A stretch of 64,000 bases of DNA from contig NZ_CP016172.1 of assembly GCF_001676725.1 (NCBI RefSeq), forward strand, positions 2,046,001-2,110,000, given 5' to 3'. The position numbers were made by a program, and so were the translations under genes. Origin of the DNA: Bordetella flabilis (GTDB taxonomy: Bacteria; Pseudomonadota; Gammaproteobacteria; Burkholderiales; Burkholderiaceae_B). Each line of letters opens with the position of its first letter. The stretch's first letter is position 1. The notes under the pieces were generated by a model. The model made no database searches. It was not told where the DNA came from and saw only the letters and a list, made by a program, of their open reading frames with translations. Shown here piece after piece: positions 7,003 through 52,009 of this stretch.

Positions 7003-7003
7003 T

Positions 7004-7831: not shown

Positions 7832-7981
7832 GGCAGGATGTCCCGCGGTCCGCGCCGCGCAGGCGCTCGGCCTTGCGCGCGGCATGTGTAGCGGGCGTTG
7901 ATGGGATCCCTATTTTAGAGGTGAGACGCCGGCCGGCCCGCGCGCACGATCGGGTAGACTTAGCGCCTCAGGATAGCCGCG

Positions 7982-11995: not shown

Positions 11996-12080
11996 GCTGC
12001 GCGGCCGGCTGGGGTGCGGTATGGGTCCAGCTCCGTCGGGTGTAAGCTCGCCGTGCGCGCATCGCCGGCCGGCATGCGGA

Positions 12081-12125
12081 GCGCAAACCACCGAAGCGCA
12101 AACCACTGAAGCCCAATCAACTGAA
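12081..12125. repeat. Three 15-bp tandem repeats upstream of the PPTase start
   Basis: Three adjacent 15-bp units, GCGCAAACCACCGAA, GCGCAAACCACTGAA and GCCCAATCAACTGAA, run to 12125, with a partial fourth copy to 12134. They are in frame with the transferase and would encode AQTTE-AQTTE-AQSTE if translation began upstream, for example at the ATG at 12021, but they probably lie in the 5' untranslated region. Confidence 0.8.
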
Positions 12126-12140
12126 GTGCAAAGCGTCCTC

Positions 12141-12878
12141 ATGCTCCCTTGCGTGGCCATCACGCCGTTGAAGACCGTAGGCGTGCCCGACGATGTCGCG
12201 ATGTGGCGGCTCGACCTCGATCTGCGTGCGGACTTGCCGGAAGGCGTGATGCGATGGCTGGACGAAGCGGAGCGCGCCCGCCTGGGTCGCTATGTGCGCC
12301 ATGAGGACAAGCTGCGCTTCGCCATCACGCGCGCAACCCTCAAGCACCTGCTGGCACAGGCGGTCTCTTGCGCGGATCCGGCTCGCGTGTCGTTGACCTA
12401 CACGAACCGCGGGCGTCCCCAATGGGCCGCGTCGGAGCTGCGCTTCAATGTCTCTCATTCCGGCGCGCTCGCATGCCTTGCCTTATCGCCGATGCGCGAA
12501 GTCGGCATCGACGTCGAGTCCATGTCCGGCATCCATACCGATATCGAAGCGCTGGCACGCATCGTCCTTACCGATGCCGAGTGCGATGCATGGACGCGCC
12601 TGCCGGCTTCGCAACGCGCCGATGCCTTCTACCGCCACTGGGTGTGCAAGGAAGCGGCGCTGAAGGCCACCGGCCATGGCATCGCGGAGTTGCTGCGGCA
12701 TATCGCCGTGCGACCCGCCCAGGACCCTGCCGGGCTGCGTGTCGAATGCGACCTGCCTACGCGCGAGGGCGCGTCGCTGCAGCAATTGTCCCTGCGCATG
12801 CTGGCCTTGCCCGCCGGCTATGCCGGCGCGGTCGCATGGGCGCCACCCCATGCAGGGTCTGGCGCGCGGTCCGGGTGA
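12141..12878 (+). CDS. Sfp-type 4'-phosphopantetheinyl transferase
   Basis: 245 aa enzyme that attaches the CoA-derived phosphopantetheine arm to carrier-protein serines; it probably activates the seven carrier domains of the NRPSs in this island. Motifs in order: FNVSHSG at 102-108, GIDVE at 122-126 (Mg-binding Asp/Glu) and WVCKEAALKATG at 167-178. Length fits the Sfp class. The start is taken at the ATG at 12141; GTG at 12126 and ATG at 12021 are in frame upstream, and no strong ribosome binding site settles the choice. It lies 260 bp upstream of the mbtH gene, outside the Fur-box promoter, so it may be expressed separately. Confidence 0.93.
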   Translation: MLPCVAITPLKTVGVPDDVAMWRLDLDLRADLPEGVMRWLDEAERARLGRYVRHEDKLRFAITRATLKHLLAQAVSCADPARVSLTYTNRGRPQWAASELRFNVSHSGALACLALSPMREVGIDVESMSGIHTDIEALARIVLTDAECDAWTRLPASQRADAFYRHWVCKEAALKATGHGIAELLRHIAVRPAQDPAGLRVECDLPTREGASLQQLSLRMLALPAGYAGAVAWAPPHAGSGARSG

Positions 12879-13003
12879 CATGTCGCGCTTGCGTCACGCT
12901 GGCTGCAGACAATGCCGGGATGGGGACTACGGTGTCCCCACATAAGCCCATATAACGAGTCGCATCGATTTTCTTCCATTGCGAAGATGCTTGTCGATGC
13001 GCC

Positions 13004-13032
13004 TTGACATCACGAGTCGCTACCCGTAGATT
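13004..13032 (+). promoter_or_regulatory. Predicted sigma-70 promoter of the siderophore biosynthetic operon
   Basis: TTGACA at 13004-13009 and TAGATT at 13027-13032 are separated by 17 bp, a near-consensus arrangement, in the AT-richer gap before the MbtH gene. The predicted start near 13039 places the Fur box immediately downstream, a position suited to blocking transcription when iron is plentiful. Confidence 0.6.
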
Positions 13033-13048
13033 TCGCAATGACAGTGCA

Positions 13049-13067
13049 AATGATAACGATTCTAATA
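13049..13067 (+). promoter_or_regulatory. Putative Fur box of the siderophore operon
   Basis: The core TGATAACGATTCTAA matches TGATAATNATTATCA at 11 of 14 informative positions and is flanked by TGCAAA/ATATGCA, extending the dyad. It lies 72 bp before the mbtH start codon and just downstream of the predicted promoter. Iron-loaded Fur bound here would repress the whole mbtH-to-NRPS operon. Confidence 0.68.
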
Positions 13068-13138
13068 TGCACTCAATCGAATACAAACTCGCGTGACATA
13101 CAAGCCGCGCGAGTCCTGATCTACAGCGGAGGGACTGC

Positions 13139-13366
13139 ATGAGCTGGGATGATGAGCAGGTTCGATTCAAGGTCGTGATCAATCACGAAGAGCAATATTC
13201 CATTTGGCCGGCGTACAAGACCCGCGTTCCGGACGGCTGGCGTGAGGCCGGCATGGAAGGGAACAAGGCGGAGTGCCTGGCCTATATCGAGCAGCATTGG
13301 ACCGACATGCGGCCCTTGAGCCTGCGCAAGGCGATGGACGGCGAAGCGGCGACTGCGTCTTCGTAG
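13139..13366 (+). CDS. MbtH-like NRPS chaperone
   Basis: 75 aa MbtH-family protein, which binds and activates NRPS adenylation domains. The signature residues are all present: [30 protein letters not shown] and DMRPLSLR. A clear AGCGGAGGG ribosome binding site lies 5-13 bases before the ATG. It is the first gene of the biosynthetic operon downstream of the Fur box; its partners are presumably the six amino-acid adenylation domains encoded downstream. Confidence 0.97.
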
Positions 13367-13393
13367 CCGCCCGCGCCCAGCCGGCCGTCTGCC

Positions 13394-14254
13394 GTGACAC
13401 GACCCGTCCTGAACCTGCTGTGCCTGCCCTACGCGGGCGGCAGCGCGTCCATGTACCGCTTTTGGCCCACCCATGTGCCGCCATGGTTGCGCGTGGTGGC
13501 GCTGGAGCTGCCCGGACGCGGCGCGCGTCAGCAGGAAGATGCCCTGGCGGATTGGCCGGCGCTGCTCGATGTTCTTGCCAAGGATGCGCGGCCATGGCTG
13601 GACCGGCCGTACGCGCTTTTCGGCCACAGCATGGGGGCCTTGATCGCCCTGGAGCTCGGCCATCTCTTGCGCGACCGCCATGGCGCGGCGCCGGCATGGC
13701 TGGGCGTTTCCGCCTGCACCGCGCCGTCCCGCCGCAAGCCGGAACACCAGTGGCTCTCGTGCTCGCGAAGCGAGTTGCTGGGCGAACTCCGCGCGCTGAA
13801 GGGTACGCCTGCGGAACTGCTCGATAACGCGGAATTCATGGCCATGATCGAGCCGACCTTGCGTGCGGATTTCCATCTGTGCGGGACGCACGTATCACCG
13901 CCACGGGAGCCCTTGCACTGCCCGGTGCTTGCGCTGTGCGGCCAGGACGACACGGATATCGCCGGCGACCCCGACAACCTGCGCGGCTGGCAGCGCGAGT
14001 CGGATGGGCGGTTGCGGACGCAACTGCTGGACGGCGGGCATTTTTTCATTCAGGTCCAGCGCGAGGCGGTGCTCGCGGAAGTCGTGCGCGAGCTGGCCGC
14101 CGTCGCGGAATCAATCACCTCGACCCCCCTCGTATCGAGGGCGATGCATGGGTACGGCGGTACCGCGCCGTTGGCACCCGACAGACAAACGGACAGCACA
14201 CGTTCTTCTGGCAACGACATGCACGCTCGCTCCGGCAACTCGACCTCCTGTTAG
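13394..14254 (+). CDS. Type II thioesterase (NRPS editing)
   Basis: 286 aa alpha/beta hydrolase of the GrsT/RifR type, which removes wrongly loaded or stalled groups from carrier-domain arms. The catalytic triad is recognisable: Ser79 in GHSMG, Asp185/186 in LCGQDDTDI and His216 in GGHFF. LPYAGGSASMYRFW and LELPGRG are family-typical. The start is GTG at 13394, 27 bp after mbtH. Family members end near residue 245; here a Ser/Thr/Gly-rich tail of about 44 residues follows (TSTPLVSRAMHG onward), resembling no domain and possibly non-functional read-through after a small 3' rearrangement. Confidence 0.93.
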   Translation: MTRPVLNLLCLPYAGGSASMYRFWPTHVPPWLRVVALELPGRGARQQEDALADWPALLDVLAKDARPWLDRPYALFGHSMGALIALELGHLLRDRHGAAPAWLGVSACTAPSRRKPEHQWLSCSRSELLGELRALKGTPAELLDNAEFMAMIEPTLRADFHLCGTHVSPPREPLHCPVLALCGQDDTDIAGDPDNLRGWQRESDGRLRTQLLDGGHFFIQVQREAVLAEVVRELAAVAESITSTPLVSRAMHGYGGTAPLAPDRQTDSTRSSGNDMHARSGNSTSC

Positions 14255-14332
14255 CCGCCCCGCGCACGCGCGGCCCGGCGCATGGCCACGGCATTTGCCG
14301 CGGCCCGGACCGACTTCGCCTGGAGACCGACC

Positions 14333-15775
14333 GTGACTTCGTCAATGCTGTCGCCGCTTTTCGACTTCGAACCGCACAAGGCGCGCCGGGAGGAAGCGCT
14401 CGCCCTGATCAGGCAGTTCGCCGCACACCCCGCCTTTCGCAGCGCGGTGGTCGAGGAACTGGAACTGGACGAGGATTTCTACCGCCGCCCCCTGCGTCCG
14501 GAGGACCTGGAGTTCCTGAAATTCCAGAAGCCCATCACCGCGGCCACCGTCAGCCGGCTGCCGTCGCTTACCTCGAACCGGCTCCTGCTATGCATCAACG
14601 AGCTGGATATCGCGCGCCTGCCACGCCCCGATGCGCAGGATATCGAGCGCTGCGAGGCCTTCTACGGCGACGATAGCCAGGTTACGGGCCGCCGCATCCA
14701 ACCCTTCCTTGAAAGCTATGCCTTCAGTTATCTCGGCGACCAGGTGCGCGATGCGGTGCCTGCCGCGCGCCAGCGTGAATGGCTGCGCGCGGTGTACGAG
14801 GCCGAGTCGGCGCAGTGGAGCGACATGCTGGCCATGCTCGAAGCGAACGACTACCTGCAGGAAGGCTTGCGCTTTATCTTCATCCAGAACTGGAGTCTCC
14901 TGCCGTCGCGCCAGGTGGCCGTGGCGCGCGCGGCGGTATCCGGGTACTTCGATGCGGTCGAGCCGGCGGACAGGCCCGGCCTGGCGCCTTCGGCCGGCGT
15001 CGAGCGCATGATGACGCAGGCCGCCGCGATGCTGGGCGTGGCCAGGCGTGCCCATTCCTACTGGCAGTTCTACCTGCCGACGAGTCTGGCGAAGACCAAC
15101 CTGCTGCACGCACTGGCCCGGCGTCCGCATCGTGCCTTCGCATTGCTGGGGACGGCCTATGCCGCCGAGGCGGAGTGGCTGGCCTTCATCGCGGCCCTGC
15201 GCACGGCGTGCCCGCACCTTGCGATGGATGTGGACGGCCAGCCGATCGCTGCGGACGGTATCGATGCGCTCGACGGGCGCTTCACACGCGCGCTGGACGC
15301 GATCGGCCGGGCGCATGGACGCATCGGCCTGGGCTGCGTCGCGCAGGGCTTGGCCGGCTATGCGTTGCTGGCCGACCGAGCGCGCTGGGACCGCGGGGAG
15401 CAACTGGGTTGGCTGTCGTCGATCCGACAGTATTGCGCCTGGGCCGGCGATATCGAAAAACGCATCCACGTCGAGTGCCCGAATATCGACCGGGAAACCT
15501 TCGTCGAGCCGCGCGAGATGTGTTCGACCACGCATGTGCACAACGACCATCGCCTGGTCGTGATCGAGGAGGGCGACATGGTGTTCTGGGGCAATCTGGG
15601 CATGCAGCTGGAGATGACCGTGGGCGATAAGGTGCTGATACCGGATGGTCGCCTGCACGGGTCGACCGTGGTGTCCGCGGAGTGCACCTATCACCAGCCC
15701 ATCATCCCGGAAGCCTGGATCGCCGAATTGCGCGCCCGCGCGCGGAACGGTGCGACCGCCTCCCTGGCGACCTAG
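14333..15775 (+). CDS. grbE: GrbE-like protein: helical domain plus C-terminal cupin (putative graminine biosynthesis)
   Basis: About 480 aa. The C-terminal part, about 395-465, is a cupin: THVHNDHRLVVIEEGD supplies the HxH and Glu metal ligands and GRLHGST the last His. The N-terminal 390 residues are mostly helical (YAFSYLGDQV, HSYWQFYLPTSLAKTN) and suggest the helical redox-enzyme type associated with DUF6202, though I cannot confirm metal ligands. In gramibactin-type loci a protein of this kind (GrbE) is encoded beside GrbD and, to my knowledge, both are required to form the diazeniumdiolate amino acid graminine. GTG at 14333 has GGAG seven bases upstream; ATG 14282 and ATG 14348 are alternatives. 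The next gene follows after 16 bp. Confidence 0.68.
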   Translation: MTSSMLSPLFDFEPHKARREEALALIRQFAAHPAFRSAVVEELELDEDFYRRPLRPEDLEFLKFQKPITAATVSRLPSLTSNRLLLCINELDIARLPRPDAQDIERCEAFYGDDSQVTGRRIQPFLESYAFSYLGDQVRDAVPAARQREWLRAVYEAESAQWSDMLAMLEANDYLQEGLRFIFIQNWSLLPSRQVAVARAAVSGYFDAVEPADRPGLAPSAGVERMMTQAAAMLGVARRAHSYWQFYLPTSLAKTNLLHALARRPHRAFALLGTAYAAEAEWLAFIAALRTACPHLAMDVDGQPIAADGIDALDGRFTRALDAIGRAHGRIGLGCVAQGLAGYALLADRARWDRGEQLGWLSSIRQYCAWAGDIEKRIHVECPNIDRETFVEPREMCSTTHVHNDHRLVVIEEGDMVFWGNLGMQLEMTVGDKVLIPDGRLHGSTVVSAECTYHQPIIPEAWIAELRARARNGATASLAT

Positions 15776-15791
15776 AGAAATGGAGAACGGT

Positions 15792-16637
15792 ATGCACCCC
15801 GAGTCGCTCGACGCAGCGGCGCGCGAGGACGCGCCGCGCAATGGATCCTGGCGCGAACGCATCATCCTGGGCGACGAATGCCCGCCGCGCGCCGTGCCCG
15901 AATGGCTTGCCGCGTCGTATGAAACCTTGCGCGGCAAGGTGATGGATCCCGCGTATCCCTGCTTCTTCGGAACGCAGGCGGAGAAGCGAGGCGAGATGTT
16001 CTATTCCTATGTGACGGGCCGCGATTGGTCGATGCTGCCCGCGACCATGCGGACCTTCGCCAGCCTGTCCGCGCTGCCGCAGTACCAGAAGAACAACATT
16101 GCCATCTTCTTCGAGCCGGACCGCGAGCCGCGCGGGCATGACGCGTATCGCGAGGACTTCTGGCGCATCCTGCAGGGCCTGCATGATGTCGATCCGGATC
16201 CGGCCGCGGACGGCCAGCCCGACCCCGATCACGCGGACTGGGAGTTCTCCTTCGCCGGCGTGCAGATGTTCGTGGTGTGCGCCTGCCCGTCCTTCCGGGT
16301 ACGCCGCAGCCGCAACCTCGGCCCCGGCATGGTGCTGCTGTTCCAGCCGCGCAGCGTATTCATCGACAAGGTCACCAATCGCGTGATCGGGGTGCAGGCC
16401 CGCACGGAGGTGCGCCGACGCCTGGAGCGCTGGGACGACATCGGCGCGCATCCCGACCTGGGTTTCTACGGCGACCCCGCCAATCGCGAATGGAAGCAGT
16501 ACTTCCTGCCGGACGACAACAGCGCGGCGTCGCGCTGCCCCTTCCTGAACCGCCGCCATGCGGCAAGCGGAAGCGCCGCAGCTGACGAGGCGGCATCGAT
16601 GCAGACGCCGGTACGACTCAAGGGCAAGGGCCTCTAG
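15792..16637 (+). CDS. grbD: YqcI/YcgG-family N-oxygenase, GrbD-like
   Basis: 281 aa. It carries the YqcI/YcgG family marks: YPCFFG near residue 55, the WEFSFAGVQMFVVCACPSF stretch with RRSRNLGPGM around 150-177, LLFQPR, and YGDPANREWKQYFLPDD near 225. Family members such as AglA are haem-dependent oxygenases that N-hydroxylate arginine; GrbD of gramibactin biosynthesis belongs here. The predicted role is N-oxygenation of arginine on the way to graminine. ATG 15792 has GGAG six bases upstream; ATG 15780 is an in-frame alternative. It lies between the GrbE-like gene and the first NRPS gene, only 2 bp before the latter, so it is clearly part of the biosynthetic operon. Confidence 0.82.
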   Translation: MHPESLDAAAREDAPRNGSWRERIILGDECPPRAVPEWLAASYETLRGKVMDPAYPCFFGTQAEKRGEMFYSYVTGRDWSMLPATMRTFASLSALPQYQKNNIAIFFEPDREPRGHDAYREDFWRILQGLHDVDPDPAADGQPDPDHADWEFSFAGVQMFVVCACPSFRVRRSRNLGPGMVLLFQPRSVFIDKVTNRVIGVQARTEVRRRLERWDDIGAHPDLGFYGDPANREWKQYFLPDDNSAASRCPFLNRRHAASGSAAADEAASMQTPVRLKGKGL

Positions 16638-16639
16638 AC

Positions 16640-19600
16640 ATGGATTCCATCGTGGACAAGCAGCATCCCGGCGATGCGCCGGCAGATATGCCGCGTAATG
16701 GCGGCTGCGAGGCGGGCACGGCCGGCATGCACGGCGACGCGGCGGCCGGGCTGCACCGCGGCATGCTGGACGTGTCGCGCGCCTACGCGGCGCTGCCGGC
16801 GGACAAGCGAGAGGCGTTCCGGACGGCCCTGGCCAGCCGCGGCATCGACGGCGCCAGGCTGCCCATCGTGGCGTTGCCGCCGCGGCAGGGACGGTCTGCG
16901 CTGTCGTACGCGCAGGAGAGGCTGTGGTTCCTGTGGCGGCTGGATCCGGACAGCGCGGCGTACAACATCGCCGCGGCGATACGTGTACGCGGCGGACTGG
17001 ATGTGGCCGCGGCGCGCCGGGCGCTGGCCATGCTGGGCGCGCGCCATGACATCCTGCGGTGCCGCTTTGTCGAGGTGGACGGCGTGGGCATGCAGGAGTT
17101 CGCCGATATCGAGCCCGCATGGCGGCACGATGACATATCGCCCACACCCTCGCCGGAGCGGGAAGCGACACTGGCGCGCCTGCTTCGCGAGCTTTCTGTG
17201 GCGCCCTTCGACCTGCAGCGCGGGCCGGTGCTGCGGGTGACGCTGATCGATGCCGGTCCGGCGGAGCAGGTGCTGCACTTCACGATGCACCACATTGCGG
17301 CCGATGGCTGGTCCCTGGGCTTGCTGCAGCAGGAGTTCGCACGCGCGTACGAAGCGGCGCTGCGCGGTGTCGCGGACACGACGCGGCCGCACGAGCTCCA
17401 GTTCGCCGATTTCGCCCGCTGGCAGCGCGAATGGCTGGAACCGGCCGCACTGGCGCGCCAGCTGGCCTTCTGGCGCGAACGGCTCGGGACCGCGCATCCG
17501 GTGCTGGAGCTGCCGATGTCGTTCCGGCGTATCGGGCCGCGCACCGCGGAGGGCGCCGGCGTGGTGCGACCCCTCGGCGGCGCACTGTCGCAGGCGCTGC
17601 GCGGCCTGGCGCGGGAGGCGGACGCCACGCCCTTCATGGTGTTTCTGGCGGCCTATGCCGTCCTGCTGTCGCGCTACGGCAACCAGCAGGACATACGCAT
17701 CGGCGTGCCGGAGTCCGGCCGGCAGCGCCGCGAAACACAAGACCTGGTCGGCTTCTTCGTCAACACGCTGGTGATACGCAGCGAGTTGCATGGACTGGAA
17801 CGTGTCGCCGATCTGTTGGCGCATGTGCGTGAGCGCGTGCGCGAGGCCCACGCGCATGGGGACGTGCCGTTCGCCGCCGTGGTAGACGCGCTGCAGCCGC
17901 CGCGCAGCCTGTCGCATACGCCGCTGTTCCAGGCCGCGATGAACTACACGGCCGCCAGGCCATCGCACTTCCGGGCTGCCGACCTGGACCTCGAGAGCCT
18001 GCCCATGCTGACGGAGACCTCGCGCTTCGATCTGACGCTGGTCGTGACGGACGGCGAAGAGATTCGCGTCGGCTTCAATTATTCGAAGGATGTGTTCGAC
18101 GGGCGGGTGGTGGAACGGATGCTGGGGCAGTTCGAAGCCATCCTGGCGCGGATGGCGGAAGGCGGCGCGGCGCTTGCCCTGGCCGACATCGCGTTGGAGC
18201 GTGACGGCAAGGGCCACGCGCCGCGCGCGGACCATCCCTTCGTTCCGGTGGCGCGGCGCGTCCGCGCGCGGGCGGCATCGCAGCCGGCTGCGCCGGCGCT
18301 GCATTGCGAGGGGCAGGGCTTGCGCTATGGCGAGCTGCAGCAGTGGGCCGATGCCATCGCGGCCCGCTTGCGCGGCGCCGGGGTGGGGACGGAGCACCGG
18401 GTGGGGCTGTGCGTGCGCCGTTCGGTGGCCTTGCCGGCGGCGTTGCTGGGCGTGTGGAACGCCGGCGCGGCCTTCGTGCCGCTGGATCCGGACTATCCGG
18501 CCGAACGGCTGGCGCAGATGATGTGCGATGCCGGCGTGCGCGTGGTGCTGGCCGATGCGCACACGGTGACGCAGCTGGGTTCATTGCTGGCTGACCGGCA
18601 TGTGATCGACGTGGCGGCATGCGCGCGGGCTGTGGATTCCGGGGAGGCCGGCGCGGCAGTGGCGACCGATCACGAGGTTGCGGACGGGAAGGGTCGGAGC
18701 GACCGGAACAACCTGCGCGTCCCGAACTCGAACTCGAACGACCGGAACGACCCGAATGGGCAGGAAGACGCGGTGCCCGAGGCGGACCCCCCGGTCCATC
18801 CGGACCAACTGGCCTACGTCATCTACACCTCCGGCTCCACCGGCACGCCCAAGGGCGTGGCGGTATCGCAGCGGTCGCTGAGCCTGCACCTGGACGACTT
18901 CATCCAGGCCTACGGCATCGGCGCGAGCGATATCCAGCTGCAGTTGTCGACCATCAACTTCGACGTCTTCCTGCACGAGCTGCTGCCGGCGCTGATCCAG
19001 GGCGGCCAGGTGCGCATGCGCGGCCCGCAGGCCTGGGACCTGCGGACCACCAGCCGCGAACTGGCGGACGGGCGCGTCACCTTCTCGCGCATCCCCACGG
19101 CCTACTGGCAGCAATGGCTGCGCGAGCCGCCGCCGGCGCAGGCGCTGCGCGCCCTGCGGCAGATCACGGTGGGCGGCGAGGCGCTGCCCGGCGACGCCTT
19201 GCGCCAGTGGCGCAGCGGGCCGCTGGGCCACATCGACCTGGACAACCTGTACGGGCCGACCGAGACGACGGTGGCCTGCATGGCGCGGCGCACCGAAGAA
19301 GCCGATACCGGGCAGGCCATCGTCTGCATCGGCCGGCCCTATCCGTCGCGCAGCGTGTACGTGATGGACGGCCAGGGCAACGAGGTGCCGGTCGGCGCCC
19401 TGGGCGAGCTGTGCATCGGCGGCGATACGCTGGCGCGCGGCTACCTGAACCGGCCCGGGCTGACAGCCGAGAAGTTCATCCCGGACCCGTACCGCGCGGA
19501 CGGTGCGCGCCTGTACCGCAGCGGCGACCTGTGCCGGCGTCGCGAGGACGGCGCGATCGATTTCCTGGGCCGCATCGACCAGCAGGTCAAGCTGCGCGGT

Positions 19601-29461: not shown

Positions 29462-29465
29462 CACC

Positions 29466-41405: not shown

Positions 41406-41443
41406 GGACGGCGGCGGGCCGTGCGGCGAGGGCGCGCGCGGTC

Positions 41444-42235: not shown

Positions 42236-42329
42236 TTCTCGTCGCTTAATCGAGGTTTGGTTCGAAAGCGCCAAATCTTGGCGGGTGCCAACCACTATCT
42301 GGCGGCCTTGGTTACGACTTGTACGCTCA

Positions 42330-42348
42330 AATAATAACAATTCGCATT
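42330..42348 (+). promoter_or_regulatory. Putative Fur box in the araC/TonB-receptor divergent promoter
   Basis: AATAATAACAATTCGCATT matches 11 of 19 positions of GATAATGATAATCATTATC, in the only AT-rich patch of the 172-bp divergent region. Fur here could control both the AraC regulator and the uptake/export operon. By-eye match. Confidence 0.55.
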
Positions 42349-42407
42349 TTCACTACCAACGGCGTCGTGGTTTCGATCCGCGCGCCACACAAGGAGCCTG
42401 AAAGGCC

Positions 42408-44642: not shown

Positions 44643-44655
44643 GCGACGCACAGGC

Positions 44656-45645
44656 ATGACCAACCGCCGCGGCTTTTGCCTGGGACTGGGGACGGGACTT
44701 GCGCTCGCCCTGTCCGGCCGCGCGCGGGCGGCGGCGCCACGCATCGCCTGCACGGACTGGGCGGCGGCCGAAAGCCTCGCGCTGCTGGACACCATGCCCA
44801 TCGCCGTGCCCGAACTCGATGTGTACCGCCTATGGCTGCCCGACCCCGCGCTGCCGGCGGGTACCGCCGACCTGGGCGCGCGCACCGAGCCCAACCTGGA
44901 AGTGCTGTCCACCCTGAAGCCGGATCGCATCTTCATCTCCAGTTGGCAGGCCGGCATGCTGCCGCTGTTCCGCCGCATCGCGCACACCGACATCGCCAAA
45001 CTCTTCGATGCGCGCGGCGATCCCTACACGGGCATGCGCGAATTGCTGCTGCAAGCGGGCCGCGCGTGCGGCCGCGAGCCATTGGCGCGCAGCCGCCTTT
45101 CCGATTTCGACGCGCAGCTGGATGCCCGGCGCGGCCTGCTGGCCGCAGCCGGGGTGCATCGCCCGGTGTACGTTGCCGTGCTCCACGAGAACGGCGCGCA
45201 GGCCTATGTGTATGGCCGCGGCAGCTGGGTGGACACGGTCATCGGCAAACTGGGACTGCGCAATGCCTGGACGGCCGCCACGACGTTCTACGGAAACAGC
45301 CTGGTGGGCATACCGGCGCTGGCCGCCGATGCCGAGGCCGCCATCCTGTACCTGGACCAGGGCGCGCGCACGCAACGCGCGCTGGCCTCGCTGCGCGACA
45401 GTACGTTGTGGCGCGGATTGCCTGCCGTCGCCGCCGGACGCGCCATCATGATTCCCTCGTTCTATGCCCTGGGCGGCTTGCCGTCCGCGGCGCGCTGCGC
45501 GCGCTTGCTGGCCGCCGCAATGACGGACGGCAACATGGCGGGCGGCGAAACGTTGACGGATGCCGAGGTGCGGCGCGCCACCTCTGGCGGCGCCCGCCTG
45601 GACCGGACCGCGGCCGCCGACATCCGGACCGGCGTGGACGGATAA
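44656..45645 (+). CDS. FhuD/FecB-type periplasmic siderophore-binding protein
   Basis: 329 aa binding protein of a siderophore ABC importer. The N-terminus (MTNRRGFCLGLGTGLALAL) has an RR pair and hydrophobic stretch ending in RARAAAP, a Tat- or Sec-type export signal. The rest follows the FhuD fold: DWAAAESLALLD near the start, LKPDRIFISSWQ, a long backbone helix region, and a C-terminal domain with LWRGLPAVAAGRAIMIP. It starts 13 bp after the receptor and is followed by the permease after 4 bp. It should deliver the ferric siderophore to the FhuB-like permease. Confidence 0.9.
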   Translation: MTNRRGFCLGLGTGLALALSGRARAAAPRIACTDWAAAESLALLDTMPIAVPELDVYRLWLPDPALPAGTADLGARTEPNLEVLSTLKPDRIFISSWQAGMLPLFRRIAHTDIAKLFDARGDPYTGMRELLLQAGRACGREPLARSRLSDFDAQLDARRGLLAAAGVHRPVYVAVLHENGAQAYVYGRGSWVDTVIGKLGLRNAWTAATTFYGNSLVGIPALAADAEAAILYLDQGARTQRALASLRDSTLWRGLPAVAAGRAIMIPSFYALGGLPSAARCARLLAAAMTDGNMAGGETLTDAEVRRATSGGARLDRTAAADIRTGVDG

Positions 45646-45649
45646 GCGC

Positions 45650-47677
45650 ATGGGACACGCCACGCTGCTTCCGTTCTCGGCCGTGTCGCGGCCCATCCGC
45701 TGGACCGCCGTGGCCGCCTTGCTGGCCATGGCCGTCGTCTTTACCGTGCATACGCTGACCGGGATCGCGCCGCTGTCGCACTGGGCAGCCATCCTGCATG
45801 GCCGCGCCCCGGACACGGTGCAGGCGCTGGTCTTCACCCAGGTGGCCTTGCCGCGCATCGCGATCAGCTGGCTGGTGGGCAGCGCGCTCGGCCTGGCGGG
45901 CCTGCTGTTTCAGCAGGGGCTGCGCAATCCCCTGGCCGACCCCGCGACCATCGGCGTGTCATCCGGCGCCTACCTGGCCCTGGCGGCGGCGACCCTGTAC
46001 GCGCCCTCGCTGCTGGGATGGAGCGCCGAGGCGGTGGCGCTGGCCGGCGGCATCGCGGCCTGCGCGCTCGTGATGACGGTGGCGCGCCGCTCGCAGTTCT
46101 CCACCATCCACATCATCCTGGCCGGGCTCATCGTTTCGCTGTTCTGCGGCGCCGCCGCCTCCGCGCTGACGGTGATGAACCACGAATACCTGAGCGGGCT
46201 GTTCGTCTGGCAGACGGGCTCGCTGGTGCAGAACGGATGGCAGAAAGCAGCGCGCATGCTGCCGCAGTGCGCGATCCTGGCGATCGGGGCGGGCTGGCTG
46301 GCACGGCCGCTGAACATGCTCACGCTGGACGACGCGCGCGCGGCATCGCTGGGCGTGCATGTCTCCCGGGTGCGCATGGCCGCCATCGCCCTGGGCGTCG
46401 CCTTCAGCGCGGTGGCCGTTGCCTGGGTCGGCGTCATCGGCTTCATCGGCTTGATGGCCCCGCACCTGGCCCGCATGCTGGGCGCGCGCACGCTGGCGCA
46501 GCGCATGATCGCCGCGCCACTGCTGGGCGCGCTGCTGCTGTGGACCACGGACCAGGTGGTCCAGACCCTCGGCCGCGCGGGGGCCGCCATACCGACGGGC
46601 AGCGCCTGCGCCGTGGTCGGCGCGCCCATCCTGCTGTGGCTGCTGATGCGCCAGCGCGGCGGCCTGGGAACGCGACCGGCGCCCGGCGCGGTGGCCGATG
46701 GCGCGCACGGCGTGGTGCTGCAACGCGGCCTGCGCAACCATACCGTACTGCTGCTGTGCGGCCTGGTATGCCTGGCCAGCGTGCTGGGCGCGCTGGGGTT
46801 GGGGCGCGACATGCATGGCTGGACGGACTTCGCGGACACCGGGTGGAGCACGATACGCGACTGGCGCCTGCCGCGCGTCGCGGCCGCCGCGCTGGCCGGC
46901 GCCATGCTGGCCGCGGCCGGCATGCTGCTGCAGCGGCTCACCGGCAACCCGCTGGCCAGTCCGGAGGTGCTGGGCATTTCCTCGGGCGCCTCGCTCGGCG
47001 TCATCGCGACCTTGCTGCTGACGGCGGACCTGGGCGCGCCCGGCATGCTGGCTGCGGCCAGCGCGGGGGCGCTGGCGACGCTGGCGGCGGTCGTGGCGCT
47101 GAACTGGCGTGCCGGGTTTTCTCCCGAGCGGCTGTTGCTGGCGGGCGTCGCCTTGTCCACGTTGTTCAGCGCCTGCGCCGCCTTCCTGCTGACCAGCGGC
47201 GATCCACGCGCGGCGGCCCTGCTGACATGGATGTCCGGCTCGACCTACCGTGCCACCAGCGCCAGCATCCTGCCCGGTTCGGCGATACTGGCGCTCGCCT
47301 GCATCGGCGCGCTGGCCGGGCGACGCTGGCTGGCGATACTTCCGCTGGGCACCGAAGGGGCGAGGGCGCTGGGCGTCGACGTTCTCATCGCGCGCCTTTA
47401 CTTTCTGGTCATCATCGCGGTGCTGACGGCAAGCGCCACCATCCAGGTGGGGCCGCTCAGCTTCGTGGGGCTGCTGGCGCCGCACATCGTGCGGGGATTG
47501 GGATTGCAACGGCCGGGCGCCGCCTTGGCCGGCTCGGTGCTGGTCGGGGCCGCCATCATGGTGCTGGCCGACTGGGTTGGCCGCATCGCCGTTTTTCCGT
47601 GGCAGATCCCGGCCGGACTCGTCGCCATGCTGGCGGGCGGCCCCGTCTTCCTTTGGTTTTTGTGGAGAAGCAAATGA
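45650..47677 (+). CDS. Fused FhuB-type siderophore ABC permease
   Basis: 675 aa inner-membrane protein made of two tandem FecCD-type permease halves (about 1-340 and 345-675), as in FhuB. Each half contains the paired motif: GLLFQQGLRNPLADPATIG in the first and GMLLQRLTGNPLASPEVLG in the second, and each ends with the GFIGLMAPHLAR / SFVGLLAPHIVR coupling segment that contacts the ATPase. About 20 membrane segments are expected. The start is ATG 45650, 4 bp after the binding-protein stop; its stop codon overlaps the exporter start as ATGA. It forms the importer with the flanking binding protein and the FhuC-like ATPase. Confidence 0.94.
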   Translation: MGHATLLPFSAVSRPIRWTAVAALLAMAVVFTVHTLTGIAPLSHWAAILHGRAPDTVQALVFTQVALPRIAISWLVGSALGLAGLLFQQGLRNPLADPATIGVSSGAYLALAAATLYAPSLLGWSAEAVALAGGIAACALVMTVARRSQFSTIHIILAGLIVSLFCGAAASALTVMNHEYLSGLFVWQTGSLVQNGWQKAARMLPQCAILAIGAGWLARPLNMLTLDDARAASLGVHVSRVRMAAIALGVAFSAVAVAWVGVIGFIGLMAPHLARMLGARTLAQRMIAAPLLGALLLWTTDQVVQTLGRAGAAIPTGSACAVVGAPILLWLLMRQRGGLGTRPAPGAVADGAHGVVLQRGLRNHTVLLLCGLVCLASVLGALGLGRDMHGWTDFADTGWSTIRDWRLPRVAAAALAGAMLAAAGMLLQRLTGNPLASPEVLGISSGASLGVIATLLLTADLGAPGMLAAASAGALATLAAVVALNWRAGFSPERLLLAGVALSTLFSACAAFLLTSGDPRAAALLTWMSGSTYRATSASILPGSAILALACIGALAGRRWLAILPLGTEGARALGVDVLIARLYFLVIIAVLTASATIQVGPLSFVGLLAPHIVRGLGLQRPGAALAGSVLVGAAIMVLADWVGRIAVFPWQIPAGLVAMLAGGPVFLWFLWRSK

Positions 47678-49374
47678 ACGCCTTCAAGCCCGCGGCCTCC
47701 GCCCCGCGGCCGGCCTCGCTGCTGCGAGAAGCCATGCGCCTGCTCAGGCCCTTCTGGAAGGTGGCCCTGCTGGCCACCGCCATGGGCGCGGCCAGCGGCC
47801 TGTCCACCGCCTGGCTGCTGGCCACGGTGAACCGCGCCCTGCATGCGCCGCAAGGCGCCACGGTGGGCCTGCTATGGTTGTTCGCCGGGCTTTGCGTGGT
47901 GACCATCGCCGGCGAAATCGCCTCCGACCTGGGCAACAGCTTCGTCGGCCAGAACGTGGTGGCCAAGCTGCGCAAGGACCTTTCCGAAAAAATCCTGTCC
48001 GCGCCCATCGCCGAGATCGAACGCTACCGCGTGCATCGCATCACCACGACGCTGAACCAGGATATCGACACGATCAGCACCTTCACCTTCGGCTTCTCCG
48101 GCCTGGCCATCGCCATCGCCATCACGGTCGGCTGCTTTGCCTATCTGGCGGTGCTGTCGCCGGTACTCAGCCTGCTGGCCGCGGCCGCCATCGCACTGGG
48201 CAGCTGGGCCCATGCCGTCGCCCGGCAGCGCGGCCGCAAGGGCTTCGAGGCGGCGCGCGAGGCGCAGGACGAACTGCAGCGCCACTACCGTGCCATCACG
48301 GAGGGCGCCAAGGAGCTGCGCATCAACCGCGATCGCCGCCGCACGCTGCGCGACGCGCACCTGCGCGGCACCATCGAGCGCATCCGCGACCTGCGCGTGC
48401 GCGCCATGCGGGTCTTCATGTCGGCCAATGCCTTCGGCTCGGCCTTGTTCTTCATCGTCATCGGCGTCGTGCTGGCGCTGCAGTACAACCTGTCCACGCC
48501 CGCGCCGGTGCTGTCCGGCTTCGTGATCGTGCTGCTGTATGTAAAGGGGCCGCTGACGCAGTTGATCAGCGCCTTGCCGCTGCTGGGGCAGACCCAGGTC
48601 GCCATCCGCCGCGTCGCCGAACTGTCGCTGCGGTTCTCCAATCCGGAATCCAGCCTGTTCGCCGTGCCGGCGCCGGCCGCGCCTCGGCGCCCCGGCTCCA
48701 TCGAGCTGCGCGGCGTGCGCTATGGCTATCCCACGGACCAGGGCGCCAGCATGTTCAACCTGGGCCCCATCGATCTGCGCATCGAGGAAGGGGAAATGTT
48801 CTTCCTGGTCGGCGAGAACGGCAGCGGCAAGACCACGCTCATCAAGCTGCTGCTGGGCCTGTACGAACCGCAGGAAGGCATCATCCTGCTCGATGGCCAG
48901 CCCGTGGTCGCCGACAACCGCGATGACTATCGCCAGCTGTTCAGCACGGTGTTCGCCGACTACTACCTGTTCGACGACGTGCTGGTGGGCCCCACGCAAG
49001 CGGCCGAGGCGGCGGTCTACCTGGAAAGGCTGGAACTGGGCCACAAGGTATCCGTCACCGACGGCAGATTCTCCACCACCGACCTGTCCACCGGGCAGCG
49101 CAAGCGCTTGGCCCTGGTCCATGCCTATCTGGACAAGCGGCCGGTGCTGGTCTTCGACGAATGGGCGGCCGACCAGGACCCGGCTTTCCGCCGCGTGTTC
49201 TATACGGAGATCCTGCCCGATCTGAAGCGCGATGGCAGGACGCTGATCGTCATTTCGCACGACGACCGCTACTTCCATGTCGCGGACCGCGTCGCGCACA
49301 TGTCCAACGGCCGCATCGTCAGCGTGGAGACCCATGCCGAGGCGCCCCGCCAAGCCACGGCGGGACGGCCATGA
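47674..49374 (+). CDS. PvdE/SyrD-family cyclic-peptide ABC exporter
   Basis: 566 aa half-transporter: an N-terminal six-helix membrane domain (about 20-320) fused to an ATPase with Walker A GENGSGKT near 380, the diverged signature LSTGQRKR near 471 and Walker B VLVFDEWAADQDP near 494. The FDEW and STGQ variants are diagnostic of the PvdE/SyrD cyclic-peptide exporter group, which moves peptide siderophores or lipopeptides across the inner membrane. Its start and stop overlap both neighbours by ATGA, so the exporter is translated coupled with the importer genes that flank it. Predicted cargo: the NRPS product. Confidence 0.95.
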   Translation: MNAFKPAASAPRPASLLREAMRLLRPFWKVALLATAMGAASGLSTAWLLATVNRALHAPQGATVGLLWLFAGLCVVTIAGEIASDLGNSFVGQNVVAKLRKDLSEKILSAPIAEIERYRVHRITTTLNQDIDTISTFTFGFSGLAIAIAITVGCFAYLAVLSPVLSLLAAAAIALGSWAHAVARQRGRKGFEAAREAQDELQRHYRAITEGAKELRINRDRRRTLRDAHLRGTIERIRDLRVRAMRVFMSANAFGSALFFIVIGVVLALQYNLSTPAPVLSGFVIVLLYVKGPLTQLISALPLLGQTQVAIRRVAELSLRFSNPESSLFAVPAPAAPRRPGSIELRGVRYGYPTDQGASMFNLGPIDLRIEEGEMFFLVGENGSGKTTLIKLLLGLYEPQEGIILLDGQPVVADNRDDYRQLFSTVFADYYLFDDVLVGPTQAAEAAVYLERLELGHKVSVTDGRFSTTDLSTGQRKRLALVHAYLDKRPVLVFDEWAADQDPAFRRVFYTEILPDLKRDGRTLIVISHDDRYFHVADRVAHMSNGRIVSVETHAEAPRQATAGRP

Positions 49375-50231
49375 GCGGGGCGATGCGCTCACGCGCCGGC
49401 CTGCCGCCGCAGGCCGCTGAACCGGACGATGCGGCCGGGCTCAGCGCCGGCGCGGCGCCGCTGCTGGCCTTGCGCGACACCGGCTTCCAGGCGGACGGCA
49501 GGGCGATCCTGCAACCGCTGAACCTGGCGATTCCGCCGGGCCGCATGCTGGGCGTCATCGGCCATAACGGCTCCGGAAAATCCACGCTGGGCAGGATACT
49601 GGCACGGCAGCTCGCGCCTACGACGGGCCAGGTGCTGCTGCGCGGCGCGCCGGCGGAGCGAATCGGCGCGCGGCAGTTCGCGCGCGAAGTCGCCTATCTG
49701 CCGCAGCACATTCCCGCGGCGGCGGGCATGACGGTGGAAGAACTGGTCGGCCTGGGCCGGTATCCGTGGCTGGGCGCCTTCCGGTCGCCCACCGAAGTGG
49801 ACCGCGACCAGGTCCGGCATGCCATGGCCACTACCGACGTGGCCGGACTCGCCACGCGACTGGTGGACACGCTATCCGGAGGTGAACGGCAGCGGGTGTG
49901 GCTGGCGATGCTGGTGGCGCAGCAGGCGCATATCCTCGTCCTGGACGAGCCCACCTCGGCGCTCGATATACGCCATCAGGTGGACATGCTGGGACTGTTG
50001 CGCCAGTTGACGCGCACGCAGGGGGTCGGCGTCGTCATCATCCTGCACGATATCTACATGGCGGGACGCTATTGCGACGACATCATCGCCCTGCGACAGG
50101 GCAGCATCGTCGCGGCGGGCAACCGCGAGCAGATTCTGACGCCCGCGACGCTGCAGGCGATCTATGACGTCGAAATGGACGTCATGGTGCACCAGGCCTC
50201 GGGCGACCGCGTGGTGTGCCTGCGGCATTAG
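49371..50231 (+). CDS. FhuC-type siderophore ABC transporter ATPase
   Basis: 286 aa ATPase. Walker A GHNGSGKS near 64, Q-loop in YLPQHIP, signature LSGGERQR near 169, Walker B ILVLDEP near 190 and switch His in ILHDIYMAGRYCD. The FhuC/FepC features (GRYPWLGAF) are clear. The start overlaps the exporter stop codon as ATGA. It powers the FhuB-like permease, from which it is separated only by the exporter gene. It is probably the last gene of the coupled block; the next gene lies 144 bp downstream. Confidence 0.95.
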   Translation: MSGAMRSRAGLPPQAAEPDDAAGLSAGAAPLLALRDTGFQADGRAILQPLNLAIPPGRMLGVIGHNGSGKSTLGRILARQLAPTTGQVLLRGAPAERIGARQFAREVAYLPQHIPAAAGMTVEELVGLGRYPWLGAFRSPTEVDRDQVRHAMATTDVAGLATRLVDTLSGGERQRVWLAMLVAQQAHILVLDEPTSALDIRHQVDMLGLLRQLTRTQGVGVVIILHDIYMAGRYCDDIIALRQGSIVAAGNREQILTPATLQAIYDVEMDVMVHQASGDRVVCLRH

Positions 50232-50375
50232 CCGGCGGCGCGGCCCACCGTCACGAACGCGATACCGGCCTACGTATCCATGGCGTACGGCCGGGGCAGG
50301 GCCGAAGTACGGACGAGTTGCGGACGACCGCCGACCGGACGGTCGCCCCTGGATTCCCACCGTCGAGAGGATGGA

Positions 50376-51941
50376 ATGGAACTGAGCAGACGGGCGTTTA
50401 TTCTGGGACTGGCCGCGGTGGCGGGCCCGACGGCGGCCCTGGCCGCCGCGCACACCCTGGTGCCGCCGGCCACGACTGCCGAGCCGGCCTTGCTGCGCGG
50501 CAGGCTGCGGCAGGCGCCCGCCGATCTGGGCAAAGGCCGCTCGGTGGTCATTGTGGGCGCCGGTATCGCCGGCATGGTGGCGGCCTACGAATTGACGCGC
50601 ATGGGGTTCGCGGTCACCGTCCTCGAAGCCGGCGACCGCGTCGGCGGCCGCATCCTGACGCTGCGGGCTGGCGATACGGTGCGTTACGCCGACGGCACCG
50701 TGCAGCACGTCGACTATGCGCCAGACCTCTACTTCAATGCCGGCGCGGCGCGTATTCCGAGCACGCACCGCGCGCTGCTGGGTTATTGCCGCGAGCTCGG
50801 CGTGCCCATGGAAATCGTCTCGCTGATCTCGCGCAGCGCCCTGGCCGTCGTCAACGACAAGGGGGAGGACCGCCGTTATACCGTGGGCCAGTTGCAAGGC
50901 GACGCGCGCGGTTATCTGTCCGAAATGCTCGCCAAGTGCGCGCAGCAGGGCGCCCTGGACGCCCGGCTGGACGCCGGCGACAGCGAAAAGCTGCTGGGGC
51001 TGCTGCGCGATTTCGGCGACCTGACGCGCGACCACCGCTATGCGGGGTCGCGCCGCTCCGGCTATGCGGTCAGCCCGGCGGCGGGAGATGTCAGCGGTAC
51101 GCTGCGCAAGACGCTGGATTTCCGTGTGCTGCTGGACCATCGCCTGTGGTATCCGCTGTGGTACGACGAGCATCTGGAGTACCAGCCCACCATGATGCAG
51201 CCGGTGGGCGGCATGGATGCGATCTCCACGGCCTTCGCCCGTGTGCTGGGTGATCGCGTGATACGCCAGGCGCCGGTCACCGACATCCACATCGCGGACC
51301 GGGGTGTGCAGGTGACCTACCGCCGGGGATCGGATCGCGCGCCGGCCCGCCTGAGCGCGGACTACGCGATCATGACCTGCCAGTTGCCGGCGCTGCTGCG
51401 TATCGCCAACAACCTGCCGCGCGCCTTCCTGGATGCCGCTGCTTCCGTGTCCTATCGCCCCGTCTTCAAGATCGGGTGGCAGTCGCCGCGCTTCTGGGAG
51501 GAAGACTTCGACATCTACGGCGGAATTTCCTTCCTGGACGACGACACCAGCCTGGTCTGGTATCCCAGCAGCGGCTTTTTCGCGCCGCGCGGCCTGCTGG
51601 TCGGTGGCTACACCCATGGCCCGCCCGCCGTCCGCTACGCCGACCTGAGCCTGCCGGCCCAGCAGGCGGCGTCGCGCCGTTCGGTCGACCGCCTGCATCC
51701 TGGGCAGTCCGGCAAGCTCTCCCACCCGGTCTCGGTGGCGTGGCACAAGCTGCCCTACAGCCAGGGCGGGTGGGCCGACTGGCATGAACCCATGGGAGCA
51801 GCCTATGAAACACTGATCGCGCCGCAAGGCCCTTGCTATTTCGCCGGGGAGCATCTCAGCCACCTGCCGGGGTGGATGGAGGGCAGCGTGCAGTCCGCGC
51901 TGACCGCGGTGGACGGGATGGCCCGGCGTGCCGCGCGATAA
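50376..51941 (+). CDS. Tat-exported flavin monoamine/L-amino-acid oxidase
   Basis: 521 aa. The N-terminus MELSRRAFILGLAAVAG is a twin-arginine signal; the FAD-binding motif VVIVGAGIAGMVAAYEL begins near 59, followed by VLEAGDRVGGRI (second FAD motif), and the C-terminus has GPCYFAGEHLSHLPGWMEGSV, the conserved FAD-contact segment of the monoamine oxidase/L-amino-acid oxidase family. GAGAGG eight bases upstream supports ATG 50376. It lies 144 bp after the transporter ATPase on the same strand. Placement next to a PvdE-like exporter suggests periplasmic processing of the peptide or its precursor, but an unrelated amine-catabolic role is possible. Confidence 0.88.
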   Translation: MELSRRAFILGLAAVAGPTAALAAAHTLVPPATTAEPALLRGRLRQAPADLGKGRSVVIVGAGIAGMVAAYELTRMGFAVTVLEAGDRVGGRILTLRAGDTVRYADGTVQHVDYAPDLYFNAGAARIPSTHRALLGYCRELGVPMEIVSLISRSALAVVNDKGEDRRYTVGQLQGDARGYLSEMLAKCAQQGALDARLDAGDSEKLLGLLRDFGDLTRDHRYAGSRRSGYAVSPAAGDVSGTLRKTLDFRVLLDHRLWYPLWYDEHLEYQPTMMQPVGGMDAISTAFARVLGDRVIRQAPVTDIHIADRGVQVTYRRGSDRAPARLSADYAIMTCQLPALLRIANNLPRAFLDAAASVSYRPVFKIGWQSPRFWEEDFDIYGGISFLDDDTSLVWYPSSGFFAPRGLLVGGYTHGPPAVRYADLSLPAQQAASRRSVDRLHPGQSGKLSHPVSVAWHKLPYSQGGWADWHEPMGAAYETLIAPQGPCYFAGEHLSHLPGWMEGSVQSALTAVDGMARRAAR

Positions 51942-52009
51942 CGCGTACCAGGCCGTCCAGGGCCCTTTCGGCGGGCGGTGCCGGACGTCAGTCAGGTTAC
52001 GATAAGGCC

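What the first reader, a model, noticed from the sequence alone, without database searches (positions are those of the whole stretch)
12141..51941. Putative diazeniumdiolate (graminine) lipopeptide siderophore locus in an Alcaligenaceae-like genome
Adjacent genes encode a YqcI/YcgG N-oxygenase (GrbD-like) and a cupin protein (GrbE-like), directly ahead of a two-protein NRPS with two identical unassigned A domains. The predicted assembly order acyl - residue 1 - Thr - Thr - X(D) - Thr - X recalls gramibactin-type siderophores, in which two graminine residues bind iron and donate NO. The Fur boxes, AraC activator, TonB receptor, exporter and importer around it complete a siderophore system. I know such loci mainly from Burkholderia relatives; one in this lineage would widen their range.
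Basis: partly seen in the sequence, partly recalled or inferred. Interest (0 to 1): 0.93.

Follow-up and report, generated by a model that had tools for sequence, protein, structure and literature searches.

The report
Bordetella-type graminine siderophore island, new variant
A 40-kilobase gene block in a relative of Bordetella carries the enzyme pair and assembly-line pockets that mark gramibactin-type iron scavengers, so it likely makes a lipopeptide with two nitric-oxide-donating graminine residues; it lacks the usual module for the third iron-binding residue and instead carries an unassigned amino-acid pocket and a flavin oxidase predicted to be exported.

Summary
The finding holds. Two of six NRPS A domains read DVHRTGLVAK, the published graminine code, and fall inside the graminine clade of our A-domain tree. 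The predicted peptide acyl-X1-Thr-Thr-D-Gra-Thr-Gra is co-linear with gramibactin (OHAsp-Thr-Thr-Gra-Gly-Gra). The block fills ~12.00-51.99 kb; in two related genomes the two flanks lie 48 and 65 bp apart. Graminine clusters in Bordetella are already in print in one sentence (PMC12971057), so the lineage claim is not new. Apparently new is the subtype: the window, Bordetella sp. N and two Herbaspirillum genomes share one receptor, Fhu-type importer, PvdE-like exporter and a Tat-signal flavin oxidase of the L-amino-acid-oxidase kind. Window and Bordetella sp. N lack the Asp-type module and TauD hydroxylase used for OHAsp in most relatives; at position 1 stands a Ser-derived pocket, DVWH(F/Y)GRINK (also in H. 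rhizosphaerae). B. petrii keeps a decayed relic of this operon. X1, the third iron ligand and the oxidase's substrate are open; no product was tested.

The parts
12000..51990 (.). whole island; the two flanks lie 48 bp (G028) and 65 bp (G026) apart in two relatives without the cluster
   Evidence: tblastn and blastn of the flanks
12141..12878 (+). Sfp-type phosphopantetheinyl transferase
   Evidence: PF01648 5.2e-16
13046..13064 (+). Fur-box-like site ahead of the MbtH gene (13/19)
   Evidence: weak
13139..13366 (+). MbtH-like protein
   Evidence: PF03621 2e-22
13394..14254 (+). type II thioesterase
   Evidence: PF00975 7.7e-44
14282..15775 (+). GrbD-type SznF-like protein: cupin His triad kept, most diiron ligands lost
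   Evidence: SznF match 4.5e-48; residue table
15780..16637 (+). GrbE-type YqcI/YcgG protein, predicted arginine N-hydroxylase
   Evidence: PF08892 1.7e-63; AglA 1.1e-42
16640..29461 (+). NRPS1: C-A(Gra)-T-E-C-A(Thr)-T-C-A(Gra)-T-TE
18305..19841 (+). A domain, code DVHRTGLVAK (graminine); ends approximate
20200..21842 (+). epimerization domain after the first graminine; ends approximate
   Evidence: TIGR01720 3.5e-27; EGHGRE and NYLG motifs
23237..25009 (+). A domain, code DFWNVGMVHK (Thr); ends approximate
26792..28324 (+). A domain, code DVHRTGLVAK (graminine); ends approximate
28646..29359 (+). thioesterase domain; ends approximate
   Evidence: PF00975 2.4e-26
29466..41405 (+). NRPS2: FAAL-T-C-A(X1)-T-C-A(Thr)-T-C-A(Thr)-T
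29490..31290 (+). fatty-acyl-AMP ligase domain (lipid starter); ends approximate
   Evidence: NF004509 and other FAAL models
32958..34547 (+). A domain for residue 1, code DVWHFGRINK, sister to Ser domains, substrate unassigned
36216..37742 (+). A domain, Thr code DFWNIGMVHK
39474..41058 (+). A domain, Thr code DFWNIGMVHK; ends approximate
41444..42235 (-). AraC-type regulator
   Evidence: PF12833 3.1e-22; 81% identical in the B. petrii relic
42333..42351 (.). Fur-box-like site between AraC and receptor genes (12/19); a 12/19 site lies at the same place in the B. petrii relic
   Evidence: weak
42408..44642 (+). TonB-dependent siderophore receptor
   Evidence: TIGR01783 6.2e-123
44656..45645 (+). 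FhuD-like periplasmic binding protein
   Evidence: PF01497 2.7e-16; NF007864 6.1e-42, below its cut-off
45650..47677 (+). FhuB-like double permease
   Evidence: NF007866 705.5 bits against a cut-off of 554
47674..49374 (+). PvdE-like cyclic-peptide exporter
   Evidence: TIGR01194 8e-197
49371..50231 (+). FhuC-like ATPase
   Evidence: NF007863 4.4e-93, below its cut-off
50376..51941 (+). flavin oxidase of the L-amino-acid-oxidase type with a Tat-like SRRAF start
   Evidence: PF01593 1e-41; 2JAE 2.1e-72; R5, R6 and F8 invariant in 10 aligned proteins

Best explanation
The island holds the graminine enzyme pair (GrbD and GrbE types) and an assembly line with two graminine-code pockets, and is predicted to make, export and re-import a gramibactin-like lipopeptide siderophore, acyl-X1-Thr-Thr-D-Gra-Thr-Gra. 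Inferred route: GrbE hydroxylates arginine and GrbD's cupin site rearranges it to graminine; the FAAL domain of NRPS2 loads a fatty acid, NRPS2 adds X1-Thr-Thr, NRPS1 adds D-Gra-Thr-Gra and its TE releases the chain; the PvdE-like pump exports it; the two diazeniumdiolates bind Fe(III); receptor and FhuDBC-like importer bring it back, likely under Fur and the AraC-type regulator. X1 stands where gramibactin has beta-hydroxyaspartate; its Ser-like pocket with an added Arg suggests an acidic hydroxy amino acid, perhaps preformed hydroxyaspartate, that would give the third bidentate ligand. The flavin oxidase probably acts in the periplasm on the siderophore system; its substrate is unknown.
For: Pocket code identical to the published Gra code (PMC10391617, passage) at two A domains, nested with the gramibactin and tistrellabactin Gra domains. 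GrbD type: SznF homology, cupin H418/H420/H459 kept, most diiron ligands lost, which fits the split of labour proposed for chalkophomycin (PMC10849742, passages). GrbE type: AglA homology. Same gene order in Bordetella sp. N except for the AraC gene. Co-linear with the A-domain order of P. graminis and in line with the residues reported for gramibactin (PMC9679993, passage). Clean insertion. B. petrii keeps the AraC-receptor-importer-exporter-oxidase end and the end of NRPS2 without a GrbD, as PMC12971057 describes for its transporter-only 'cheater'.
Against: No product, expression or iron response is shown. X1 is unassigned; if X1 is Ser the molecule has only four donor atoms from known ligands. 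TauD absence is not decisive: P. graminis C4D1M, of the species that makes OHAsp-containing gramibactin, also has no PF02668 hit on the contig of its cluster. The Fur sites are weak. In Bordetella sp. N the NRPS1 counterpart reads in separate frames. More distant relatives of the oxidase (35-47% identity) occur widely without GrbD: 14 of 17 oxidase-bearing genomes searched had none (one of the 14 is the B. petrii relic).
Confidence: 0.88

Rival explanations
1. A bis-graminine siderophore with no third ligand: X1 is serine or another non-chelating residue and iron is bound by four donor atoms, as in tetradentate dihydroxamates.
For: No Asp-type A domain and no TauD in the window or the Bordetella sp. 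N cluster; the X1 domain is sister to Ser domains.
Against: The pocket differs from the Ser domains of the tree at four of nine positions (V299F/Y, S301G, L322R, D331N), and the variant is kept in three genomes; the position is that of OHAsp in gramibactin.
Confidence: 0.35
2. X1 is converted after assembly: the Tat-signal oxidase modifies the exported peptide in the periplasm (as pyoverdine is matured there; recalled) and so creates the third iron-binding group.
For: Each of the four named genomes with an oxidase of 57% identity or more has it in this operon: Bordetella sp. N, the B. petrii relic and two Herbaspirillum; 8 of 12 genomes, those with graminine clusters of the other type, have no such copy (best there: 36%, elsewhere in Reyranella); Tat-like start; PvdE-like exporter in the same operon.
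Against: The closest solved structure is an L-amino-acid oxidase, and the arginine of GA(A/T)RIP is conserved, which points to a free amino acid as substrate (role of that arginine recalled); no PvdQ-type acylase family appears among the 30 single window proteins scanned with Pfam. The context of three further close relatives (P0241-P0243) was not examined.
Confidence: 0.2
3. A product without graminine: the enzymes stop at hydroxyarginine or make another N-N product.
For: No GrbD or GrbE of this lineage has been tested in the papers seen; chalkophomycin uses another A code for its graminine (PMC10849742, passage).
Against: A-domain code and clade are those of proven graminine clusters; the GrbD type groups with them, apart from SznF and the diiron-complete proteins.
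Confidence: 0.06
4. A silent or decayed cluster.
For: The B. petrii counterpart is decayed, so decay happens in this lineage.
Against: The 14 window genes are open from start to stop and two pairs overlap by ATGA; A, T, TE and cupin motifs are present; GrbD, GrbE and oxidase of 93-96% identity are found in other sequences.
Confidence: 0.05

Closest known systems
Gramibactin cluster (Paraburkholderia graminis)
   Same: GrbD, GrbE, MbtH, TEII and FAAL counterparts, A order Asp-Thr-Thr-Gra-Gly-Gra against X1-Thr-Thr-Gra-Thr-Gra, same Gra code, PvdE-like exporter 41%
   Different: X1 pocket DVWHFGRINK in place of Asp, Thr in place of Gly, one E domain (after Gra1) instead of two, an added flavin oxidase; GrbD 54% identical
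Cluster of Bordetella sp. N (unstudied as far as seen; genome G027, named by its contig length)
   Same: same gene order and subtype, DVWHYGRINK at position 1, oxidase 62%, receptor 73%
   Different: no AraC counterpart found; NRPS1 counterpart split over frames
Clusters of Herbaspirillum rhizosphaerae and Herbaspirillum sp. CF444 (unstudied as far as seen)
   Same: GrbD 62-63%, receptor 63-64%, exporter 76%, oxidase 57-58%; NRPS2 53% and the DVWHFGRINK pocket in H. rhizosphaerae
   Different: clusters broken over contigs, NRPS1 not read in full; X1 pocket of CF444 not on the contigs read
Transporter-only relic of Bordetella petrii (G124, named by its contig length)
   Same: AraC 81%, receptor 71%, FhuD 64%, FhuB 71%, exporter 84%, oxidase 67%, last ~950 residues of NRPS2 61%
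   Different: no GrbD; FhuC in two frames; oxidase with two TGA in the matched stretch
Clusters of Bordetella sp. LUAb4, Pollutimonas bauzanensis, Pandoraea capi, Chitinasiproducens palmae
   Same: GrbD, GrbE, Gra code
   Different: carry an Asp-type A domain (DLTKxGHxGK) and a TauD-family protein; no oxidase counterpart
Tistrellabactin cluster, Tistrella mobilis
   Same: Gra code, GrbD and GrbE homologs
   Different: one Gra, with hydroxamate and OHAsp as further ligands; GrbE fused to an NRPS (PMC10391617, passages)

Membership tests
graminine (gramibactin-type) siderophore clusters | GrbD: SznF-like protein with cupin His triad | tested here: met
graminine (gramibactin-type) siderophore clusters | GrbE: YqcI/YcgG protein beside GrbD | tested here: met
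graminine (gramibactin-type) siderophore clusters | NRPS A domain with code DVHRTGLVAK | tested here: met
   two domains; reference code from PMC10391617
graminine (gramibactin-type) siderophore clusters | siderophore receptor and transport genes in the cluster | tested here: met
graminine (gramibactin-type) siderophore clusters | product loses NO and binds Fe(III) | not testable with these tools
   needs mass spectrometry
gramibactin subtype (two Gra plus OHAsp) | Asp-type A domain for OHAsp | tested here: not met
   absent in window and Bordetella sp. N; present in 6 of the 6 other clusters read over about 58-60 kb (Tistrella, P. graminis, LUAb4, Pollutimonas, Pandoraea, Chitinasiproducens); Reyranella and Herbaspirillum, cut by contig ends, not counted
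gramibactin subtype (two Gra plus OHAsp) | Asp hydroxylase (TauD family) in the cluster | tested here: not met
   none in the window; PF02668 on the same contig within 32 kb of grbE in 13 of 18 genomes; not in G003 (P. graminis), G009, G015, G023, G027
gramibactin subtype (two Gra plus OHAsp) | E domain after both Gra modules | tested here: not met
   motifs once in the window (after Gra1), twice in P. graminis
SznF (bifunctional N-nitrosating enzyme) | full diiron ligand set of the HDO domain | tested here: not met
   of E215, E281, H311, D315, H318 only the E281 equivalent is kept (which residues are ligands is recalled)
L-amino-acid oxidase (flavin amine oxidase) | near full-length homology to a solved LAAO and the arginine of GA(A/T)RIP | tested here: met
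   that this arginine binds the substrate carboxylate is recalled
L-amino-acid oxidase (flavin amine oxidase) | activity on L-amino acids | not testable with these tools
   needs an enzyme assay

The most novel reading that the evidence does not exclude
This is a separate branch of diazeniumdiolate siderophores, shared by Bordetella and Herbaspirillum, that has dropped the hydroxyaspartate module and reinvented the third iron ligand: a re-cut serine pocket (DVWH(F/Y)GRINK) loads a new acidic residue, and a Tat-exported amino-acid oxidase works in the periplasm either to turn it into the iron-binding group or to make the peroxide that strips NO, and with it iron, from the graminine ligands.
Probability: 0.25. 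Interest if true: 0.75.

Novelty: new variant of a known kind. Interest (0 to 1): 0.5.

Why it matters
Graminine siderophores bind iron through a group that also releases nitric oxide. The clusters seen in the papers pair graminine with hydroxyaspartate (gramibactin, megapolibactins, plantaribactin, tistrellabactins). A lineage that keeps two graminines but swaps the hydroxyaspartate module for an unassigned pocket and a dedicated oxidase gives a clean place to learn what can replace that ligand. The island with an empty site in close relatives, an intact copy, and a B. petrii relic that keeps mainly the uptake end make gain, use and loss ('cheating') of such a siderophore testable within one genus.

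Tried and rejected
DUF6202 as the family of the cupin protein: no Pfam hit. A classical Fur box: none within 3 mismatches. Reading X1 from the literature: no held paper contains DVWHFGRINK, DVWHFGRIN or VWHFGRIN; PDB neighbours of the X1 domain (best: linear gramicidin synthase subunit A, E 6.1e-173; enterobactin synthase EntF, 4.7e-103) do not settle the substrate. TauD absence as proof against OHAsp: dropped, since the P. graminis contig shows the same absence. GC content as a sign of recent import: 69.6% inside against 68.4% and 67.5% in the flanks, not telling. The oxidase as a general mark of graminine clusters: rejected; 7 of the 8 graminine genomes of the other type gave no match at 1e-40 and the eighth (Reyranella) only a 36% match elsewhere. 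The oxidase family as such is not tied to graminine either: 20 of 268 and 29 of 398 genomes have a relative at 1e-60, and 14 of 17 such genomes searched have no GrbD at 1e-50. A periplasmic siderophore-tailoring amino-acid oxidase in print: one search of four terms gave 0 papers. Graminine with Bordetella: 1 paper, PMC12971057; diazeniumdiolate with Bordetella: 5 listed, among them PMC12971057; the other four (seen as listing only, not opened) are on biofilms (three) and flavin N-hydroxylases (one) by title; graminine with Herbaspirillum: 0. These searches cover only the held open-licence library. No structure prediction or fold search was run.


Full report
What is there. Between radA (10063-11433) and an FtsX-type permease gene lie 14 genes (12141-51941) that form a complete NRPS siderophore locus: PPTase, MbtH, type II thioesterase, an SznF-like cupin protein, a YqcI/YcgG protein, two large NRPSs, an AraC-type gene on the other strand, TonB receptor, FhuD-, FhuB- and FhuC-like importer parts, a PvdE-like exporter and a flavin oxidase. 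Exporter and FhuC genes each overlap the gene before them by ATGA.

The graminine pair. The 497-residue protein at 14282 matches SznF over residues 35-460 of the solved chain (E 4.5e-48, profile of 17 relatives). The three cupin histidines of SznF (407, 409, 448 in the chain) are kept as H418, H420 and H459; of the diiron ligands E215, E281, H311, D315, H318 only the E281 equivalent is kept (the ligand list is recalled). The same pattern of loss is seen in nearly all its close relatives in that table, and the cyanobacterial, myxobacterial and second Bordetella sp. N proteins keep the full set. The YqcI/YcgG protein at 15780 is related to the arginine hydroxylase AglA (E 1.1e-42). The knock-out evidence for both genes is in PMC6771848 (parts 1 and 2 of 3 of the text read); a heme YqcI/YcgG enzyme that makes dihydroxyarginine for an SznF-like partner is reported for chalkophomycin (PMC10849742, passages).

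The assembly line. Pocket codes were read by motif and by alignment columns; the automatic reading misplaced position 278 and is superseded. NRPS1 A1 and A3 read DVHRTGLVAK, the Gra code given in PMC10391617. In a tree of 74 AMP-binding domains (including FAAL domains and one unrelated ligase) from the window and nine fetched regions, all domains with this code form one clade that holds the gramibactin and tistrellabactin domains and both window domains. Three other A domains are Thr type. NRPS2 starts with a fatty-acyl-AMP ligase. The only epimerization domain follows Gra1. Predicted order: acyl-X1-Thr-Thr-D-Gra-Thr-Gra; in P. graminis C4D1M the A domains read Asp-Thr-Thr-Gra-Gly-Gra. Dual C/E domains were not tested for, so the configuration of the Thr residues is not predicted.

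What differs. The domain for residue 1 reads DVWHFGRINK, with DVWHYGRINK in Bordetella sp. N and DVWHFGRINK in H. rhizosphaerae; the three form a clade beside Ser domains (DVWHVSLIDK). An Asp-type A domain (DLTKxGHxGK) is present in 6 of 6 other clusters read over 58-60 kb and absent in window and Bordetella sp. N. A TauD-family match lies on the same contig within 32 kb of grbE in 13 of 18 genomes; the five without are P. graminis (G003), H. rhizosphaerae (G009, contig end), G015, G023 and Bordetella sp. N (G027), so its absence alone does not exclude OHAsp. The window has none by tblastn with two TauD queries.

The oxidase. The 521-residue protein at 50376 is closest to an L-amino-acid oxidase structure (2JAE, E 2.1e-72) and begins with a Tat-like SRRAF motif whose R5, R6 and F8 are invariant in 10 aligned relatives. 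Of 12 genomes searched, four carry a copy of 58-66% identity: Bordetella sp. N, B. petrii, H. rhizosphaerae and Herbaspirillum CF444, each next to the matching receptor, importer and exporter genes. Among 268 genomes of the family two (Bordetella sp. N and B. petrii) have a copy above 60%, 18 more have 34-39% relatives; among 398 of the P. graminis family 29 have relatives of 34-47%. 14 of 17 oxidase-bearing genomes have no GrbD, so only the close branch is tied to this operon.

Distribution and history. GrbD-type relatives lie in 67 loci of the species-level genome collection, mostly Burkholderiaceae, with Tistrella, Reyranella, Acetobacter, Nitrospirillum and more distant ones. In the window's family 3 of 268 genomes have one at 1e-30 with 61-65% identity: Pollutimonas, Bordetella sp. 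LUAb4 and Bordetella sp. N. In the GrbD tree the window groups with its 93% relative and Bordetella sp. N (support 0.966); the wider group with LUAb4, Pollutimonas and Herbaspirillum has only 0.534. radA places the genome near LUAb4: best DNA identity 87% in G028, a genome of LUAb4's GTDB genus, 95% at protein level. In G028 and G026 radA and the permease gene are neighbours with the same further genes on either side, and the flank matches end at window 11999 and resume at 51991, 48 and 65 bp apart. B. petrii keeps the AraC-receptor-importer-exporter-oxidase end and the last ~950 residues of NRPS2, with FhuC in two frames and two TGA in the oxidase match: a relic of this very subtype, and in line with the 'cheater' of PMC12971057 (passages).

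Verdict. A member of the graminine siderophore clusters on every sequence feature tested, but not of the gramibactin subtype as defined by OHAsp module, hydroxylase and two E domains. The chemistry is inferred. The identity of X1 and the role of the oxidase are the open and interesting points.

Noticed in passing
L090 (Bordetella sp. N, G027:C1:2668816-2670180) and L089 (Bordetella sp. LUAb4): A second, distant SznF-like protein (27% to the window's GrbD type); the Bordetella sp. N copy keeps all SznF diiron and cupin ligands in the table, so it may be a complete N-nitrosating enzyme outside the siderophore cluster. The LUAb4 row of that table misaligned and tells nothing.
   Followed up: partly
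G027:C1, region of NRPS1 (L101-L104): The NRPS1 counterpart of Bordetella sp. N changes frame twice, each time shortly after the same GGEALP motif of its two Gra domains; the repeat of the place hints at a sequencing or assembly effect, or at paired damage.
   Followed up: partly
window 18305-19841 and 26792-28324: The two Gra A domains of NRPS1 are each other's closest relatives and nearly identical, as are the two of P. graminis, which points to duplication or gene conversion within each NRPS system.
   Followed up: no
window 4841-7885, - strand: Two squalene/phytoene synthase genes and a flavin amine oxidoreductase in a row, the look of an hpnCDE squalene (hopanoid) set.
   Followed up: no
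L051, L055, L050: GrbD-type relatives of 44-49% identity in Acetobacter senegalensis, Nitrospirillum amazonense and Reyranella; the Nitrospirillum and Acetobacter proteins keep the cupin triad.
   Followed up: no
   Followed up: no
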